Assembly (NCBI GenBank): GCA_033439265.1
Contig: JAVTVX010000035.1
Coordinates: forward strand, 21,106,001-21,170,000
Direction of reading: 5' to 3'
Source: Dillenia suffruticosa
Taxonomy: Eukaryota; Streptophyta; Magnoliopsida; Dilleniales; Dilleniaceae
Length of the DNA stretch: 64,000 bases
The notes under the pieces: generated by a model
Told to the model about the DNA's origin: nothing
Seen by the model: the letters and a program-made list of their open reading frames with translations, nothing else
Databases searched by the model: none
Translations under genes and position numbers: made by a program
Shown here: positions 1,831-43,267 of the stretch, piece after piece
Layout: each line of letters opens with the position of its first letter
Position numbering within the stretch: the first letter of the stretch is position 1

Positions 1831-3319
1831 CGTTAATTCTTTAGTCTTAGAGAGAGGGAGAAGAGAACCAGTGAGGGAAGATGGAGAGAAGTGAATGAAA
1901 GAGATCTCTTTATATAGGTGAAGTGAGTTTGAAGTCATCGTTAACTATGTAAGGCCTTTGTGCGTGTTGACTTATCAACGAATTAGTACATTAAGTCTTA
2001 TGTTTTGCATTTTAAGTTTGAGAATGATCATTGAATCTTTATTTTAAGGAAAAAAATTTTATTAAAAAAACTTATAAAAAATAGGAAATCAAACTGTAAT
2101 AAATAATTCGATTAGTATACAGGTGTCATTGAATTATGGAAAAAAAAAAAAAAACATAAATGGGTTATAATAATCAATTTGGCCATCCCAAAAATAGAGA
2201 AGTTAATCATACAACATATTTTGAATCGAATGAATATGGTGAATTCTAGGTAGTAACGTTAACGTAGGCATTTTCTATTCTAATTTTTCCATGAATTTTC
2301 TAATGAAAATATGATTAGACTTCGTAAGAATGGAAAGTTGAATCTCAATTACATAACAAAGGTCAGGCTCTTAAACTTTATCCAAAACATCATTACTTGG
2401 AAAAATAAATGTTTTGAGATCTAATAGTTTGATATTCCACGAGGCATTGTTGAATCTCCAACCTCACCCACATCCTCTTAAAATAGTAAATGCCATACAT
2501 TGTATGTTTTATGACATTTTCAAACCGCTTAATATAATTAAGTACATATAATCTTTAATTTTTTTTATTACGTAGGGTCACAAAACTACAGAAATACATA
2601 CGTTTATAAAAATTCGAATACTAATTTTAAAAAAAATATTTAAATAAGAGATATTTATCATTCGAATATCCATTCGAATATCCTTATAAAGATACAAACT
2701 ATCTTCAATTCACTTCGTTTAAGGTGCACAGGCTTTCACACACCCATGAGCTAATTTCTGTACATATAATGAATCAGGCAATCATAAGACGTAAGAATAA
2801 GTTTTAACATAGATTCAGAGGGGTAAATTAGTAGTTGAGCACAATTTGTTGTGTAGTTGAGATGTTGGAATAGAGCCTACGTGTTGACGCAGGAGAGGAA
2901 GAGTGCAACGTCGTGTTGCTCATTAATTTTTTTTTGTTTCACTTATTGCTCATTAATGGCTTCTTTCTTTCTTTTTTTTTGGTTGGATAATGGCTTCTTG
3001 CAACTTACTCACATTGTGGACAGCTCAAAAATTGATTGGATGGCCTAACTTGGGCATGTGAAAGGCCTAACCAGGAGTAGTCCACATACTTTGGGTATTG
3101 TCAGATGGAAGTCCAGGCCCAACTAGTCTAAGCCCATTTTGCACCAAAGTAAAATGGCCCGGCCCAAGTATAGCATTTGTCCCGTGGCGGGGTCTGAGTT
3201 TGAATTCCGCTTAGAGTTTATAAGTAGCCAGAGAGCTAACACCATTGCTAAGACTAGTTAGTGCATTTTTTTTTTCCGATATGAGGTATGTTATGATTAA
3301 TTCAGTTTGAGCGTATGCA

Positions 3320-3440
3320 GGGGTCTTATTTAGGGGACAGTTCTACTAATATAGTTTTTTTCTATTCTTAAGTTTCGAACTAGAGATTTGGTTCGGAGAC
3401 CTATCATTTCATTTCACTAAATCGATTGTCCATTGGTGCT
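3320..3440 (+). repeat. Dispersed AT-rich repeat, copy
   Basis: Shares the order of blocks found in the other copies: TTA(T)TTAGGGGA, then CTANTATAGTTTTTTTCTATTCTTAA, then a GAGATTTGGTT-like block and an ACTAAATCGAT-like end. Edges are approximate. Confidence 0.45.
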
Positions 3441-4690: not shown

Positions 4691-6769
4691 AATATGATTT
4701 TAAAAGAAAATACATTTAAATTAAACTTTGTCCCAAATTATGTTATGTTGTCTTAGTCAAACGATATGACCCCACTAATTTTGATTTCTTGCTTTTCATC
4801 ATGTTAGTGGTGTAATTGTCGCAATAAACCAACCAAAATGCAACCATTTGGTAACAATCCTAGTTGCTATATTTGCATACCTATTTGTATAATATAATAA
4901 TACTTTTAGTAGTTTGAGATTTAAGATTTATTCAAGTATGTGATAATAGTATTGTTTTTAATCTTTTTGAATAATGAAAATGAGCCGACACGGGGACAAA
5001 ACATCATAATACATAGTTAAGAATTTTCTATCATTTCTATGACATGATTATAAGTAAAAAATAGCTACTTAAATGTCGTCGATAGTTAGCATTAATCATT
5101 TTTTATTTTTAAGTTCAGAGCTATTACAATTTACGTTCTCACTTTTTTTTTCTTATTATATTAGAAGAGTCGAATTCGAAATTTTTAAAGAGAAATGAAA
5201 CAATATCAATTGAGTTATTACTCATCGGCTATGTTCTCACTCTACTAGTATTAGTTGGTTGATGTTAGCTCTGCACACTCCATACACAACCCTAATCAAA
5301 TGTATTTCAAACATCCACCGATCCATTGTGATTTCTTATTTTCTCTGAGTTGAGGTTGTGAAATTTTTAATAATAAATTATTAATATGATGATAAGTTTG
5401 ATTTTTATGAAGCAATTAAATTTATCAAACTATATTTTTCATTAAAAATTATTTTAATTAAACATATTATAAATAAAATAAAATAAAAATTAATTAAAAT
5501 CCAAGCAAATTAAACTTGGGTCAAAATAACATTTTTATGCAAGCAAAGTCATTTTCATCCTAACCAAAAAAAGGCACTTCTCACGCGGAAGATATTTGCG
5601 CCGACACACAATATATTAATTTTCATTTTTTTAAATAACTTTTACCGTTGAATATTTATATTAAATTTGAATAAATTTGATTCATAATGAATTAAATTTT
5701 TAAAAGAAACAAAATTTTCTTGATATCTATTTTCTTTATACACAAAACTCAAACTTAAGATATTAATTAAAAGAAATTATTCTTACTGAAATATTAATTT
5801 TTTTAATAAAATTACCGTCCCCCAACTTTAATTAAATTAGTCCGGAAATAATGATATCGACCTGGCCTACGTGGCACCACATAATCCGTCCATTTAGTTG
5901 ACTGATTCAACGAAGCCAACTCCTTTTATAGCTAATTATAGCCATCCGATCTTTCCCACAAAGTCAAACAATAAAGATGCTTTGCTGTATCTTCCGCGAA
6001 TGCGCGTCAATAGGGCCCGTATCTAATCTGTGATATGTCTACGTCTATAAATGTGAGATCCACGTAAGGCTGACTGCGCTTCACTTTTGGAAAATCCATA
6101 TTTTTTCGGCAAGTCCTTTCACCTATCCCACTACCAAGCTCAAAGGCGTGCATTACACCCTTTAAAGTAATTGGGTTGCAATTACTAAATAATCTAATAT
6201 TAAAACCATTTGAAACTCGATAAAATTAGAATTAATCGATAAACTACCAAATTCACATGTGCAAAGTAAATTTAATTTGAAAGTATAAAGAACCCATTTC
6301 AATTCATGCTTGAATTGAGTCAAATTTAAACATAATTAGTTGGGTAATAAATAGAATTTAAACTTATTAGTTCATTCAATTCAATTTATTTTTATATATA
6401 ATAATAAATATTTTTAATTAGATATTTCATGATTTGATTTAAAATCATTTAAAAGTTGAACAAATATTTATAGTGTGACAATTAGTATACCGTGTAGATT
6501 ATTTTAGGAAATAAATTTGAATTTTTAATAATAATTTTAATTTATTTAATGATCATATAAAAAGAATTATCGTTGTGCTGTGGTAATTAGCCCAACACTA
6601 AAAAAGCAAAGTGACTAACACGCGCTTGGTGGAGAGTGGGGCATGAGATATTTTTGTTAAAATGATAGTTTCTATGATTTTGAAGCAAAGAACCTCCCGC
6701 TTCCCAAATCACAAACAAGGGCTACCGAGTAGCAAATCTCGAGGAAGGACACTTTCGTGCTTCTGTTCC

Positions 6770-24600: not shown

Positions 24601-27600
24601 TTCATCATAGAACAGATATGACCATAGCTGTGTGGGTGTAAACTCCAACAGGCTGAAAAATAATTTTGATTAGATTCAAATGGAAACATATTAATTATGA
24701 TAACCGAGGTATTGGGTCCGCATCTCCAACTCTTCTTTGTCAATCCTAATTTAAATCAACTAAAATTATTTTCCATCTGCAATGACATCTTTGTCAATCC
24801 TAATTCTCTTATAATTTTGCTATCTTTTCTAAGTTTTTAATATCAAAAACTTGTGTTTGGCTCACTGTTTACCTTGAGTGTTTCTTGATTGTTTCCCTGT
24901 ATTTGAATCTTGTGATTTCCTTCATAATTTGTAGTTTACTCATATATTAAATTGGTCACGTGAGCAGTGATGGGATCATTGGAGCACTCCTTAACAATTT
25001 TGTCAATCGATGGTTCACTTAGTGCGGATGGAGAAAGCTTTGGAGAAAACAGTATGGTGCACAATGGCGAGGTTTTTGCAGCTACAGGCCCTGGAGGTGG
25101 ATCTGGTGGAACTATACTGTTATTTGTCCAAAAATTAGGCCTGGGAAAATCATCTACCATTTCAACAATTGGAGGACATGGTAGTTTCGATAGTGGTGGC
25201 GGTGGTGGTGGGAGGGTTCACTTCCATTGGTCAGACATTTCTGTTGGAGATGAATATGTGCCTATAGCAAGGGCAGAAGGGAGCATAAATACTAGGTTTG
25301 TTTCTGACCGAGCATATATTTTTCTTGTGTTGTTCAGAACCAAGCATATGCGGTTTTATTACTTCACAAGAGACTAATTTCACAAGTTGGATCCTCCACA
25401 GATGGATGACAGTTCTTGTCTGGACAAGAGATAAGTTTGAGGTGATATAGGCTGTTGTTCAGGTTTAAAGTCTACTTAGAAACTGTGCAATACACTGAAG
25501 TCTAAAAGGAGTAGGGCCATGATATAGGCTGTCATTCAGGTTTAAAGTCTACTTAGAGATTGTGCAATATACTGAAGTCTAAAAAGAGTAGGGTCATTAT
25601 ACTTCCCTTGCATGACAAATGCCTTCAATGTGCAGTTGTCACATGTACACAATTATTTTATCTTATACAGAGGCAAAGAGCTGCAACTGGAGAAAAAAGA
25701 GGATATGTGTGGGTGCGCGTGCACGCACGTGCGTGTGTGCATACTTGTAAAAAAATCAGTAGGCGTGTGTGCATACTTGTAAAAAAATCAGTAGTATTAA
25801 TAATCAAGAAAACATTTTAATTAAAATATTCATGAGAGAATAGGAAATCCATATGAAAAGATTATAAGAATAGCAACTATTACAATTATAAACTACCTGG
25901 TGGAAAGGTGCTTGTAATTGCTGAACTATCGGTATCAGATTGTTAGTACTACTGAATGAAACAACATTGATTAACTTTTGATGATCCAAAAAAGTATAGA
26001 TGAACTAATATCTTTTCCTTGTGTTTTTAATGATCAAGTTCTGTACAACATAGATCGGGTCTTTTCAGGTCGTATTTTACAACAATCTGATCTCAGTTAC
26101 CCCTTGAACTTCAAAATTCTTCTTTAGATGCCTAATTGAGTTCTAACTTGACCTTATAGCTCAACACTTGTCCAAAACATCCACTTTTGCTTCGGTAAAT
26201 TGCCCTTATAACTTGCCCTCGTAGTTGGTATCACAGTCGGTATACCAACAACCTTTGCTCGACTCTTTCTATCATACACTTTTTTCCAGTCATAAATTCC
26301 CGTTCTTGGTAAAAGGTTGTTCTCTATGTCATATATGAAAGTATACATAGAAGGATAGTAACTTGCCCGTATATATTTTATTCACTGAAATGCAACTTTA
26401 GTGGTCCAGATGCAAGAAAATTAGCTCTATGTGAATCTCATGATCATGCCCAAACATATAAGAAACTGCCTGTCCAAGAGTATGATCATGCCCAAACATA
26501 TAAGAAACTGCCTGTCCAAGAGTATGCTGGGAAAAATTGGCTGGAGTACTGTTCCATTTTTCTGATGTATAGATTTATCGGTTTTTCTGTACAATAACAG
26601 ATTGTGCTGACTTTCACATTTATGACTTTTTTAGTAATAACTGATTCTGATCCTCTGTTTCAGGGGAGGACTGGGCAGAGGTCAGGGCCTTCCTGGGGAA
26701 AATGGAACTCTTACTGGAAAAGCCTGTCCAAAAGGGCTTTTTGGGATATTCTGTGAGGTATCTGTGAGACCATATTATTACTTAGTTAGAATATCCAACA
26801 AATGCTTTATTCAGGAAAACGAAACTCTTACCAGACAAACCTGTTCAGCTGCATGAGATACTTTCACATTAAATCTGCCATTGACATACACATGCCATGC
26901 AACACATTTTAGACACAAAATTTATTGTGTGGTAACCTGTTGCCTGTTCTGGAACACAGGTTGAATTTCTGATACCTTTTTCTTTTTGCCCTTTGAGTCG
27001 GGCCCTTTTGTGGGGTTGGGAGGGGTGAGGATTGTGCAAGAAGGAAGAAACTTTGCTGCATTAATTAAAGCCTCTTACTTCTATTTAGTCACAACAGTAA
27101 AAAGCAGCATGGCCAGCTTCTGTCTAGCCAATAAGAGTGTTTTCGCCGGTTACTCCTGCCCTACTGTTGGTATTCTAGTATGCCTAATCATTACTACCTT
27201 GTTACCTTGCTTGTAAACATGTTTTAGCCTGATGATAGTAAAAGCAAACAACAACAACAACAACAACAACAACAATCTGAGTCTTAATCCCAATATTTGG
27301 GGCCTGCCATATGAGAGACAAATTTGAAGAAGATAAAATATATATATAATAGATAAATAAAATAAAATAAAAAGAAAAAGAAAAAGAAAAAGAAAAAGAA
27401 AAGTAAATAAATAAATCAATAGATATATATCTAAAATATATTAGTTTAATTTATGTGGATTCTTTTACGCCATCTATTTTTATCCAAGATCATTTTCTCT
27501 TCTAAACCCTTAACTTCCATATCTTTATAAATAACTTGCATCCAAGTTTTCAATGGTCTACCTTTCCGTTTTATTAGATTTCCCGTATTTAAGTTCTCGG

Positions 27601-38677: not shown

Positions 38678-40999
38678 TTATATGGCTTTATCCATCAACT
38701 GAATTGGGGCCAAAATGTTGGTTTTACTGGTCTCGACAATACACCCATTCATGACCATTTCTTCCAGCATGAAATGTGCTTTCTCGAGATGGAACATGAT
38801 ATCCAATTCACACTGCAGAATTAACAGACATAAAATAAGAAGAGGGCCAAACATGTTCTAGAAATGGAAGGGCACAGATATTGAATCACATTTAACACTT
38901 ACAACATTGCCAAAATGGCGATCCATGGTTTCAACCAACAGATGTATGAACTCCAGAATTGCAAGCTCATTCTGAGAACAGAAGAAAAGATGTATCATGG
39001 AAAATGTGCCATAATAGATTTGAACATCACCAAAACTCAAAACTGATTTGGTTGACTGATTTGGCTATCCAATATCATGATCTAAAACATGGTTGACATT
39101 GAATGGAAGTTAAAACCTCACATATTCCCATTTTGACATCCCTGTAAGGATAATGACGTTGAAGGTGCAGAAAGAGCTATATCAAGTTCTCATGGCCGAG
39201 CAGCATCAAGAATCTTTTTTTTTTTTTTTGAATTTCTGGCAACAAGTACTGCCTGATGGATGGACAAGGCTTCCAACATCAACAAAAAATTATCAGCAAC
39301 ATGGAAAAAATGAGAACCAAAATCCATGGGCCCCATTTAAGATCCTCATAAGGATAATGATATTGAAGGGACAGAAACAGATGAATCAAGTTCTCATGGC
39401 CGAGAGGCATCAAATTTTTTTTTTATATATATTTTTTATTTTTCTCTGCTAACACCAAAGGACTATCTGATGGATAAATAAGGTTCCAAACATCAGCAAT
39501 AAATTATCAAAAACATGTAAAATGTAAGATATGAGAACCCAAAATCTACAGTCAAATTCAGGGCAAACTGCTGCTACTGATAATAATCAATTCTAGCAAT
39601 GTATGCATCTTCATAAATTCAGCAAAATACCAAAATTTCCAAACAAACGAGTATTGATGAGGACTGAAACATATAGCGACAATGCTACAGTCATTGACAT
39701 ATGACCAAAAGTGACCTGGGGGCGAACAGATTCTTATCGGACTAGTGTCACTTTTTACAGCTAACTGAGAATAAATATGGGGTTTACACCCAAAAGGTGG
39801 CCAATGTTCATATTAGCCCAAAAGACAGTGACACCATAACTCAATAGTATGCCAACAGGCCTCATACCTAACTAATGGCTCTATGATGCTTGAGCAGACC
39901 ACTTTGATTGGAAGAGGACACAATGCAGTTTGTAAATTCTTTCCATGCAAACATCTGAACTGTTATAAATTAACAAAAATGCATTCTGAATAAAATGGGC
40001 AGTCTGGAATTGTGCAATTTCTGTTCTAGTCAATAGAGAGGGTAAATAGAAGCCATCAAAAGTACTTACTTCATCATTGTCAACTCCAATCAAGAAAAAC
40101 AGTGAGGCATAGCGTCTATAGACAATTTTGTAGTTGCGATGCTCGACAAAAGAACACTGTTTACATATGTGGAACAACATTATCAGAAGAAACCCATATA
40201 GTATCCCACAGAAAAACAGAGGTATCCGAAAACAAAAACCTTATGTGACACAAATTCATTGGTCACACAAAAGCAAATGATAGCACATAGTACCATGTAA
40301 TTATTCACTATTAGGATGACGTAAAAAAATTCCCAAAAACAGCATCAACATATGAAACCAAGATCAATTACGTCATTTCACAACCACTAATGCTAATAAT
40401 CTGAGCATCAACCTAAGTAGTCAACACAAGAGCAACAGGGGATCCAAATAACCTTAAAGTTTATTCGCTTACTGCTAGCTGTGTGTCAATTCATGCAACG
40501 AAACAAATTACAATGAACTAGAGCAAGAGAGAACAACTTATCATAGTTTAACAAAATTTTCTCCCCAAAATAATTAAAACAAAACATCGAACAGTTCTCC
40601 AGTTAACATATGTTGACTAGTAAATTCTAGTTCCAAATCTGAGGCATATAATTTAATCCAATCAAATCGAAAGCAAAAATTGGAACTAAAATAGTCTCTA
40701 AAACTGCGATCTGGTAATAAAATGGAGATTACAATAACCAACATTTGAGAAGTCGAAATTGGGAATGACTGATTCCAATGTGATTAGTGTTTGTTAACTC
40801 AATTCCGATTTTAGAACGAAACTCGTGCAAGTTTAGGGAGGGAGGGCGGGAGAGAGACCTGTTGCTCGGTTCGAGCGAGGCATTTGCGGACGATTTCACC
40901 TTCAAGAGCACGTCGTTCTTCGAGGGTTAGGTACTCGTAGTATTGTGCCAGTCTTGTTTGTCCTTGCTTGTTCACCATCAATATGAATCTGATCCCCAT
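38678..40999 (-). CDS. AP4S: AP-4 complex subunit sigma
   Basis: Small chain of the AP-4 adaptor, which sorts cargo at the trans-Golgi network (in plants linked to vacuolar sorting). Exons in transcript order: 40999-40859, 40156-40070, 38971-38903, 38812-38678, giving 143 aa, the usual length. It starts [20 protein letters not shown] and carries the sigma-chain signature in [20 protein letters not shown]. The start [23 protein letters not shown] and the end IQLMDKAI identify AP-4 rather than AP-1, AP-2 or AP-3 sigma. Introns are GT-AG; intron 1 opens with GTCTCTCTC, a pyrimidine-rich donor. Intron 2 holds a 204-bp tandem duplication. A transposon sits about 150 bp upstream of the start codon. 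Confidence 0.95.
39146..39555. repeat. 204-bp tandem duplication in AP-4 sigma intron 2
   Basis: Both copies (starting at 39146 and 39350) contain AAGGATAATGA, ATCAAGTTCTCATGGCCGAG, a T run, CTGATGGAT, AAATTATCA and GAGAACC in the same order. They differ by small indels and T-run length. Confidence 0.88.
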
Positions 41000-41152
41000 T
41001 GTTTTCCCTAGAGAGAGAGAGAGAGTGTGTGTGTGTGTGTGTGTTTTGTTTGATCAGAGAAGAGAAGGAAATGATTCTTCAGCTGAATTGGAGTCTTCTC
41101 TTGGGGAACTTTGGTTAGCGATGCCAGATTCAAATTAGATTCGGTCAGTGAT

Positions 41153-41437
41153 GGAAAAGAGATAAATTATGTAAAGTCAATTTAACCCAAATTCATAAAT
41201 TGTTCTTTAAATTTCAAAACACAATTATTGAAAATCTAGATTTTAAAAACCATAACTTCTTAGTTTTTTTTTTTTTGTTAATAACAGTATTTAACTGGCC
41301 ATTAAGTGCTGATTTGGTTCAATATGACAGATTATGTGGATATCGCATATTAAAAATTACTGATATATCACGCGATACATTAGTACCATCACAAACAATA
41401 GTGTCATGCTGACGTGATAGTATCACGTTATCATCCT
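41153..41437. repeat. Left terminal inverted repeat
   Basis: Shared blocks with the reverse complement of the right end, in order, include AGATAA(A)TTA, AAATTCATAAAT, AACCATAACTTC / AATCATAACTTC, TTAATAAC, AACTG(G/A)(C/T)CATTAA, TTCAA(T/C)(A/G)TGAC(A/G)GATTATGT and TAGTGTCA. Similarity continues inward to about 41437. Confidence 0.82.
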
Positions 41438-41658
41438 AAATTAATAAAATTTAATTTTTTTAAAATTAATAAAAATTAAAAAATTATTTATAAAAAATTA
41501 AATTTAAACTCTATTATATTAATTAAAATTTGTCATTTTCTCTCTCCTCTCCACTTTCTCTCTATCCTCTCTCTTACTGAAAAAATGAAAAAACATTTTC
41601 TCTCTCCTTCCCTCCCCTTTCTCTTCTCTCCTCCCTCGTCGCTGAGAGAGTCTTGTTT

Positions 41659-42300
41659 TGGCAACGACCCATCAGAATCCAAAACAAAATCCACCTTCTC
41701 CTCACCATTCAAACAAACATTTTGCTCAGTTACACCAGAATCAACACTTCTATTCCCTCCATTCATCACCGCGTGCCACGTGCAGTTGCACTCAATGCAC
41801 TCAATTAGGGTTAGGGTTTCTCTCTCTCTCATAATAATTGAATTCCCAACCAAATTCCCTTGAACTCTCCTTCTTCTCTCTCTATCAGCCTCATCAGGCG
41901 CAAACTCTGTATCACATCATTGACAATGCTATCCGACAAACCCTCACGATTCTTCTTTAAAACTGAAGAAGTAAACAAATTAGAAATTTTCTGCTTACCC
42001 ATTAGAGCAGCAGCCTGAGAGAGAGCAGTGGGTTTCTTTAAAGGTGGCTCCCTCTTTTTCTCCACCAGTTTCTTCTTACTCGGCTTTTCCAATTCGTTGC
42101 CGGATTCATCTGAAGACGGAGGGAGACCACCCTGAGTCCAATCCTCTGCTTGACCTTCGTCGCCGTAGCCAAGGGTGTCGTTGTTGTCGACGATGAAATT
42201 GCCATAATCCTCACGGCGTTTGGCGACTAGGATGTTCTAGGCGTCGTCGTCAACGATGTCATAGATTGAATCTTCGATTTTGATTTGGGACTCGGTAATC
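41659..42300 (-). pseudogene. DNA polymerase alpha catalytic subunit, N-terminal fragment (captured)
   Basis: On the minus strand the frame reads IKIEDSIYDIVDDDA, a TAG stop (42240-42238), then NILVAKRREDYGNFIVDN, LGYGDEGQAEDWTQGG and MGKQKISNLFTSSVLKK. After a 1-nt frameshift near 41910 it reads EFAPDEADRE, and further on MNGGNRSVDSGVTEQN and VDFVLDSDGSLP. The order of these motifs fits the N-terminal, non-catalytic region of plant POLA1 (acidic patch, FIVDDDGLGYGD-type motif, MFTSS-type motif, P-D-E-x-D-R). About 640 bp of coding-like sequence is retained. The stop, the frameshift, and loss of both the start and the polymerase domain make it nonfunctional. Confidence 0.8.
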
Positions 42301-42342
42301 TACAGAACTGCACAGGAGATTGAGGAGAGAGAGAGAGAGGAC

Positions 42343-42625
42343 GATGACATAATACTATCGTATCAGTATAAGTATTGACGTGACACTAATACGTGTGACG
42401 GTGTTAACATGTCATGTAAGCAATTTATGACACATAGTATTTACATAATCCGTCACGTTGAATTAACTTAGTATTTAATGATCAGTTAGATATCGTTATT
42501 AATGAAAGGATCGAAGTTATGATTTTTAAAATTTAAATCCTTAATTATTATATTTTAAAATTTAGAGACTGATTTATGAATTTAGAATAAAATTAACGAT
42601 TTGACATGTAATTATCTACCGAGGA
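42343..42625. repeat. Right terminal inverted repeat
   Basis: This is the inverted partner of 41153-41437. The best-matching core is 42440-42500, where the reverse complement reads TTCAACGTGACGGATTATGT against TTCAATATGACAGATTATGT on the left. Confidence 0.82.
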
Positions 42626-42639
42626 ATTCGGTCACTGAT

Positions 42640-43267
42640 TGATATCTTAACAATTTATCCATCAATTTACAGTTTTTCATTATGTCCATATGAAATGAAT
42701 ATTTTATCCTTTTTCTCTCTTTTGATCGGATGAAAAATGCCCTTCACGGCCTTTAGACTTGGGCAATTTTTTATTTTATTTTTATTTTTTTTCCCCTCTC
42801 TCTCTCCCCTGATCAGCATCAGTCTGTTTCTACGTCGTTCTTCTAAAATGGTGAAACCTGTGGGAAAGAATGAGCTTCCCAAGGAAAGCTCTTCAAACAA
42901 GATCACATTGTTGTTGTAATATATATATCATTGCACATTCTACTCCAAAATTGATCGATTTTGGAGAATGCACACCATTGAAACTTTCCTTAAAAGTGCT
43001 TTAAGCATCCATTATAGTGCAAAACTCATAGGAATAGCCTTGTTCTCTGCAAATGACTTTATTCAAAGAAGAAATATGTACACACAGAATCATCATTTTG
43101 GGTACTAAAAAAGACATGTTCCCATATGACAGTACGAGTTCTACGACCTCACAGTATTCATCAGAATCCTACCAGCCCAAACATAGTGGCTAGAAAAAAC
43201 AAAAATGGCGAACAACACCCAGAATAATTAATAGAAATCTGCTAACCACAGAAACCATTCCTGGAAC
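42640..43267. other. Spacer downstream of the PFK gene
   Basis: Contains the PFK 3' region and pyrimidine-rich DNA near 42770-42800. Open frames at 42667-42906 (-) and 42737-42919 (+) overlap each other in low-complexity sequence and are not supported. Confidence 0.5.

What the first reader, a model, noticed from the sequence alone, without database searches (positions are those of the whole stretch)
41139..42639. Pack-MULE-like transposon that captured part of the DNA polymerase alpha gene
The sequence shows about 285-bp inverted ends, a near-identical 14-bp direct repeat just outside them, and inside, motifs in the order of the POLA1 N-terminus with one stop and one frameshift. Capture of host gene pieces by Mutator-like elements is established for plants. 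It lies about 150 bp upstream of the AP-4 sigma start codon, so it may have changed that promoter, and a captured fragment antisense to its parent could make small RNAs.
Basis: partly seen in the sequence, partly recalled or inferred. Interest (0 to 1): 0.8.

Follow-up and report, generated by a model that had tools for sequence, protein, structure and literature searches.

The report
Jumping gene carrying stolen polymerase fragment
A 1.5-kb plant transposon between two genes carries a broken piece of the host's own DNA polymerase alpha gene; it is a genuine but ordinary member of a known class of gene-capturing transposons (Pack-MULEs).

Summary
Window 41159-42618 is a non-autonomous Mutator-like element. 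Its interior is a decayed, minus-strand fragment of POLA1 (Pfam PF12254, E 6.5e-10). The host genome (596 Mb, unnamed plant) holds two duplicate POLA1 loci with an open first-exon frame (C27, C12), four further copies of the fragment with the same 5' capture junction, and many copies of the same terminal repeats (capped lists). The parent is most likely the C27 gene, copied after C27 and C12 separated (no outgroup). The duplicated AP-4 sigma locus on C13 is an empty site. One claim fails: the 14-17-bp direct repeat is real but is not the target-site duplication. The family terminus (GAGATAATTACATGTCAAG) puts the ends a few bases further in, and the left repeat copy is host DNA at the empty site. 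In relatives, 5 of 14 end pairs have 9-10-bp duplications exactly at those ends, against 1 of 251 mismatched pairs. This copy has none left. Promoter and small-RNA effects are untested.

The parts
41159..41437 (+). left terminal inverted repeat, beginning GAGATAAATT (family terminus GAGATAATT, one base off)
   Evidence: Arm alignment; family terminus; homology with the empty site reaches 41158
41438..41661 (+). inner part of the family's long terminal repeat (AT-rich, then CT-rich); also at the right end of the C4 copy, absent from this copy's right end
   Evidence: C4 right arm matches window 41159-41661
41659..41799 (-). captured POLA1, downstream piece (ends ...FVLDSDGSLP), 96.5% to C27; 41660-41799 89.4% to C12
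41799..41800 (-). junction of a 262-bp internal deletion relative to both POLA1 loci, shared with the C37 copy
41800..42295 (-). captured POLA1, upstream piece (from about QIKIED, parent codon 43), 92.4% to C27, 89.9% to C12; stop at 42237-42239, 1-bp deletion near 41911
42296..42337 (-). junction piece (CT-rich, then CTGTGCAGTTCTGTAG) not matched by POLA1; shared with small differences by the five POLA1-bearing copies, pointing to one capture event
42338..42618 (-). right terminal inverted repeat, TAGATAATTACATGTCAA read inward
40862..40999 (-). AP-4 sigma exon 1 of the neighbouring gene
   Evidence: Pfam Clat_adaptor_s E 2.9e-6; coding blocks; constraint. The label AP-4 sigma rests on a recalled plant protein

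Best explanation
A non-autonomous Mutator-like element of Pack-MULE type. An ancestral copy of this terminal-repeat family took up a stretch of POLA1 coding sequence (at least parent codons 43 to about 339) once, most likely by gap repair that switched template to the C27 POLA1 gene. Copies were then mobilised by a transposase encoded elsewhere, and they lost different internal parts. One copy landed between a phosphofructokinase gene and AP-4 sigma after the duplicate chromosomes had separated, and has decayed since. Shown here: the arms, the captured gene, the parent-type loci, the shared junction, the sister copies, the empty site. Inferred: the repair mechanism of capture, the transposase source, the order of events. 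As a protein it is most likely inert; any effect would be through the AP-4 sigma promoter or small RNAs and is untested.
For: Inverted arms far above chance. POLA1 N-terminus by Pfam and solved structures. Genome search: a near full-length second copy on C37, POLA1-bearing copies on C11, C4 and C1, parent-type loci on C27 and C12. The five copies share the 5' junction and differ in their 3' parts. GAGATAAT is exact in 16 and one base off in 13 of 45 candidate ends. 9-10-bp duplications exactly at such ends in 5 of 14 end pairs, one of them the POLA1-bearing C1 copy, against 1 of 251 left and right ends paired across loci; AAAGGTAAAA on both sides in L026 by reading the rows. Empty site on C13 with homology up to 41158. 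33 sites join the window and C37 elements with C27 against 9 with C12; on the same 206 codons dS is 0.129 to C27, 0.229 to C12 and 0.194 between C27 and C12. No transposase domain inside.
Against: This copy has no recognisable target-site duplication at its true ends (TGATGGAAAA before, CCGAGGAATT after; rule not passed), nor have the C37 and C4 copies; the left end of the C11 copy was not found. The arms are only about 70-80% alike. No transposase-bearing member of the family was found: 6 regions were opened for it out of at least 150 transposase-domain matches, and two large inter-end stretches hold a copia element and transporter pieces instead. The best-scoring join in the scan (279.0) puts the right boundary 8-10 bp inside the arm, slightly above the join at the family ends (273.5).
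Confidence: 0.94

Rival explanations
1. A POLA1 pseudogene fragment (segmental or reverse-transcribed) that merely happens to lie between inverted repeats.
For: The fragment lies within one uninterrupted parental frame, so DNA and mRNA origin cannot be told apart.
Against: Four other loci carry the fragment with the same junction piece, each with at least one arm of the same terminal-repeat family, one with a 9 of 10 duplication at the ends.
Confidence: 0.02
2. An insertion with an unusually long (14-17 bp) target-site duplication.
For: 15 of 17 identity just outside the arms, rarer than chance. One published pipeline tolerates up to a 10-bp swing between repeat end and duplication (PMC4858842, passages), so it might call this one.
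Against: The left copy and the GGAAAA between it and the arm have counterparts at the empty site; joining the flanks at the repeat scores 245.5-249 against 273.5 at the family ends. Relatives show 9-10-bp duplications at the family ends.
Confidence: 0.04
3. The insertion rewired AP-4 sigma or feeds small RNAs against POLA1, and was kept for that.
For: 159 bp from the start codon. The element shares 151 exact 21-mers with the C27 locus, longest exact stretch 59 nt. Some Pack-MULE fragments in rice are expressed (PMC13317346, passages).
Against: No expression or small-RNA data. The frame is broken. AP-4 sigma is open and constrained in both duplicates (142 codons, dS 0.293, dN 0.006), which does not single out the copy with the insertion.
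Confidence: 0.08

Closest known systems
Pack-MULEs (Mutator-like elements carrying host gene fragments) of rice, maize, tomato, Arabidopsis
   Same: Long inverted repeats, non-autonomous, captured host gene fragment, several copies from one acquisition, 9-10-bp target duplications in relatives (definition: PMC3310237, passages). A bias to insert near gene 5' ends is recalled, not from a call.
   Different: This copy has lost a recognisable target duplication. No paper pairing DNA polymerase alpha with Pack-MULE or Mutator-like came up in two searches of the held library.
Maize Mutator (Mu) elements
   Same: The terminus GAGATAATT resembles the maize Mu terminus (recalled; the one paper search that included such a motif gave no listed paper holding it).
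   Different: Similarity beyond the terminus was not tested; no partner transposase identified.
Chimeric Pack-MULEs with fragments of several genes (recalled as a known kind)
   Same: The sister copy on C1 joins POLA1 to a fragment of a gene on C20.
   Different: In the window copy only POLA1 was recognised.

Membership tests
Mutator-like element (MULE) | long terminal inverted repeats, typically 100-500 bp | tested here: met
   Arms of about 280 bp in this copy; about 500 bp in the C4 copy's right arm
Mutator-like element (MULE) | 9-11 bp target-site duplication directly at the ends | tested here: inconclusive
   This copy: not seen at its true ends, perhaps decayed. Family: 5 of 14 end pairs against 1 of 251 mismatched pairs, plus L026 read by eye
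Mutator-like element (MULE) | dispersed copies with the same ends | tested here: met
Mutator-like element (MULE) | moved by a MULE-type transposase | tested here: inconclusive
   Genome has at least 150 MULE-domain matches (150 of 737 candidates scored). Six regions opened for this and two loci returned show only short AT-rich matches and, in L039, one 20-nt terminus match with 5 mismatches
Mutator-like element (MULE) | mobility: empty site | tested here: met
   Duplicated AP-4 sigma locus on C13 lacks the element
Pack-MULE | carries a host gene fragment between the ends, parent elsewhere in the genome | tested here: met
   Parent-type POLA1 loci on C27 and C12
Pack-MULE | no transposase gene inside | tested here: met
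   Six-frame Pfam scan: only DNA_pol_alpha_N above its cut-off
Pack-MULE | transcribed or small-RNA producing (reported for some, not defining) | not testable with these tools
   No expression data available

The most novel reading that the evidence does not exclude
A dispersed Pack-MULE family bearing POLA1 coding sequence supplies small RNAs that tune a core replication polymerase after genome duplication, with one copy also altering the promoter of one AP-4 sigma duplicate.
Probability: 0.05. Interest if true: 0.6.

Novelty: new member of a known kind. Interest (0 to 1): 0.27.

Why it matters
It is a clean worked case of gene capture in a plant: apparently one capture, five copies with different later deletions, a likely parent, an empty site on the duplicate chromosome, and a sister copy that also carries a second gene. 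It places capture and insertion relative to a duplication of the genome region. It adds no new mechanism.

Tried and rejected
Rejected: the 14-17-bp repeat as target-site duplication. Considered for its origin: chance, or a short templated filler copied from the left flank during repair of the right junction; not resolved. Not testable: capture from spliced mRNA against capture from DNA, because the whole fragment lies in one uninterrupted parental frame. My early idea that the 262-bp gap was an intron was wrong: it is coding sequence inside that frame. Rejected: dating by divergence of the two arms, since arms of other copies differ from them to a similar degree.

Led nowhere: the search for a transposase-bearing relative. 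Six MULE-domain regions were fetched for it (L040-L045), and two shorter loci that one search returned (L038, L039) were scanned in the same script. Only short AT-rich matches came up, plus one 20-nt terminus match with 5 mismatches in L039. L018 holds a nested copia element. L046 holds sulphate/dicarboxylate-type symporter and malate-channel pieces between two facing ends. The tree of the POLA1 pieces is a near star with weak support, so the claim of a C27 parent rests on site counts and distances, without an outgroup. Papers on DNA polymerase alpha together with Pack-MULE or Mutator-like: none in two searches; a search with walnut, a guess at the host, also gave none. The origin of the extra fragment in the C4 copy was not obtained.

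One search then added a control for the target duplications, a recount of the ends, and dS on equal codon sets (the C27-C12 value rested on 321 codons, the element values on 206). Changed: POLA1 loci called intact are now described by what was seen, an open first-exon frame.

Full report
What was claimed.

The arms. Gapped local alignment of the left end with the reverse complement of the right end gives arms 41160-41437 and 42617-42338 (lenient scoring; strict scoring covers 41160-41337 and 42617-42443). The strict score is 102 against a maximum of 55 among 969 random pairs of equal-sized stretches from the same window; the lenient score is 102.5 against 61. The ungapped core is 79 nt at 78%.

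The cargo. The minus strand of the interior matches Pfam DNA_pol_alpha_N at E 6.5e-10. In a six-frame scan with X at stops this was the only family above its cut-off; one other hit, a phage tail-fibre model, had E 0.29 and lay below its cut-off. Among solved structures the best match is yeast Pol1 at E 6.3e-4; the other two hits, at E 0.75 and 1.4, are unrelated.

The genome. The element gives 95 matches with 40 of 284 candidates scored, a lower bound. Two loci, on C27 and C12, carry POLA1 with an open frame of 364 residues from an ATG, in which the whole captured stretch lies; the frame's last residues may already be intron. I saw only this first part of each gene and take the two as duplicated parent-type genes. 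C37, C11, C4 and C1 carry the POLA1 fragment together with terminal repeats of the same family; the left end of the C11 copy was not found.

One capture, several later losses. The five copies, the window's included, share with small differences the junction at window 42296-42337, a CT-rich stretch followed by CTGTGCAGTTCTGTAG in the window, which the parents do not have. The window and C37 copies share a 262-bp deletion. C11 keeps most of that stretch. C4 has another deletion and keeps a piece further downstream. C1 stops earlier and runs into other DNA. So the original capture reached at least from codon 43 to about codon 339 of the parent. In the window copy there is also a stop at codon 59 and a 1-bp deletion. 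The stop that one search lists at codon 204 lies at the deletion edge and may be an artefact of alignment.

Which parent, and when. Across columns present in the window copy, the C37 copy and both parents, 33 sites put both elements with C27 against C12, and 9 the other way; 28 separate elements from parents, 46 differ between the elements, and 2 split them between the parents. On the same 206 codons dS is 0.129 from the window copy to C27, 0.229 to C12, and 0.194 between C27 and C12; with the C37 copy included, on 202 codons, C37 is 0.158 from C27 and 0.233 from C12. Over all sites of the upstream piece, however, C27 and C12 are closer to each other (0.061) than the window copy is to C27 (0.080), as expected if the copy lost constraint. 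With no outgroup this is an argument from distance. It favours capture from the C27 gene after the two genes separated. The tree itself is a near star with weak support.

The ends and the direct repeat. Aligning the ends of other copies shows a family terminus GAGATAATTACATGTCAAG; 16 of 45 candidate ends carry GAGATAAT exactly, 13 differ by one base, and 16 by more, the last being partly internal or chance matches. That places this element at 41159-42618; each of its own ends is one base off. Of 14 end pairs in the fetched loci, 5 had 8 of 9 or 9 of 10 matching duplications exactly at the ends: L014 (the C1 copy with POLA1), L017, L021, L025 and L027. The same rule passed 1 of 251 left and right ends paired across different loci, and did not pass the window pair. 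L026 has AAAGGTAAAA on both sides by reading the rows; its right end was missed by the automatic rule. The C37 and C4 copies had none.

The window copy's own flanks at those ends, TGATGGAAAA and CCGAGGAATT, share only GA-GGAA with a gap. It lies 3 to 11 bp (left, depending on how much of it is counted) and 7 bp (right) outside the ends.

The empty site. The AP-4 sigma region has one strong second match in the genome, C13:4741044-4741860 at 87%; the other 38 listed matches are short and fall on one simple repeat. The C13 stretch has no element. Window homology runs in the left flank to 41158; on the right the BLAST matches resume at 42834, and the pairwise alignment carries the homology back to the element's edge with some gaps. 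The left repeat copy and the GGAAAA that follows it have counterparts there (GGTCAGTAAGGGAAAAC), so they are host DNA. Joined flanks score 273.5 with the family ends and 245.5 to 249 with the repeat as boundary. The top of the scan (279.0) has nearly the same left boundary (41158-41160) but a right boundary 8-10 bp inside the arm, so the right end is less exactly fixed. The origin of the right repeat copy is unresolved.

Neighbourhood. There are 159 bp between the near end and the AP-4 sigma start codon. Four coding blocks of AP-4 sigma, located with a recalled plant protein, are open in both duplicates: 142 codons, dS 0.293, dN 0.006; splice sites were not checked. On the other side is a phosphofructokinase gene (30.7 bits against a cut-off of 30.9, so just below). 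The POLA1 fragment lies on the same strand as AP-4 sigma. The captured part has 45% G+C against 36% for the window. The element shares 151 exact 21-mers with the C27 locus and 73 with C12, so small RNAs from it could match the parent; whether any are made is unknown.

Wider family. The C1 copy also carries a stretch of 177 residues. Residues 3-132 match a 1745-residue open frame on C20 at 88% and 3-131 one of 1662 on C17 at 76%; residues from about 130 on match other places. A 139-residue open frame runs from POLA1 into this second fragment. That is a chimeric Pack-MULE. The C4 copy has a further fragment that I only recall as GARP-like; Pfam found nothing, and the genome search for it did not complete.

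Transposase. The genome has at least 150 MULE-domain matches, with 150 of 737 candidates scored. Six regions opened for this, and two shorter loci returned itself, show no such ends beyond short AT-rich matches and one poor 20-nt match in L039. A source of transposase is therefore inferred, not shown.

Literature. Definitions come from passages of PMC3310237, PMC8277862, PMC13317346 and PMC4858842. No paper was read whole. No paper joining DNA polymerase alpha with Pack-MULE or with Mutator-like was found in two searches, which cover only the held library.

Verdict. A real, well-supported Pack-MULE carrying part of POLA1; new member of a known kind.

Noticed in passing
L014:1615-3887 (C1:2493114-2495386): Chimeric sister copy: POLA1 joined to a fragment of a large gene on C20 (coiled-coil-like by eye), with a 139-residue open frame across the junction (2938-3357, minus) and a 9 of 10 target duplication.
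   Followed up: partly
L013:2995-6336 (C4): Another POLA1-bearing copy, 3.3 kb, with a further captured-looking fragment at 5305-5652 (minus).
   Followed up: partly
L046 (C29:12560500-12568500): Two facing ends of the family about 7.6 kb apart enclose broken sodium/sulphate-symporter and malate-channel pieces: either a large gene-carrying element or two elements around a decayed gene.
   Followed up: partly
Own genome, for example C21:11985670-11985972: 11 of the 150 MULE-domain matches listed have the same score (63.0 bits) and an 870-residue open frame without stops, as if one transposase family had spread recently; the one opened (L040) lacks the window element's ends.
   Followed up: partly
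L018 (C4:266500-276000): Copy of the same terminal-repeat family with copia retroelement domains between its ends.
   Followed up: no
window 26440-26523: Two perfect head-to-tail copies of a 42-bp unit.
   Followed up: no
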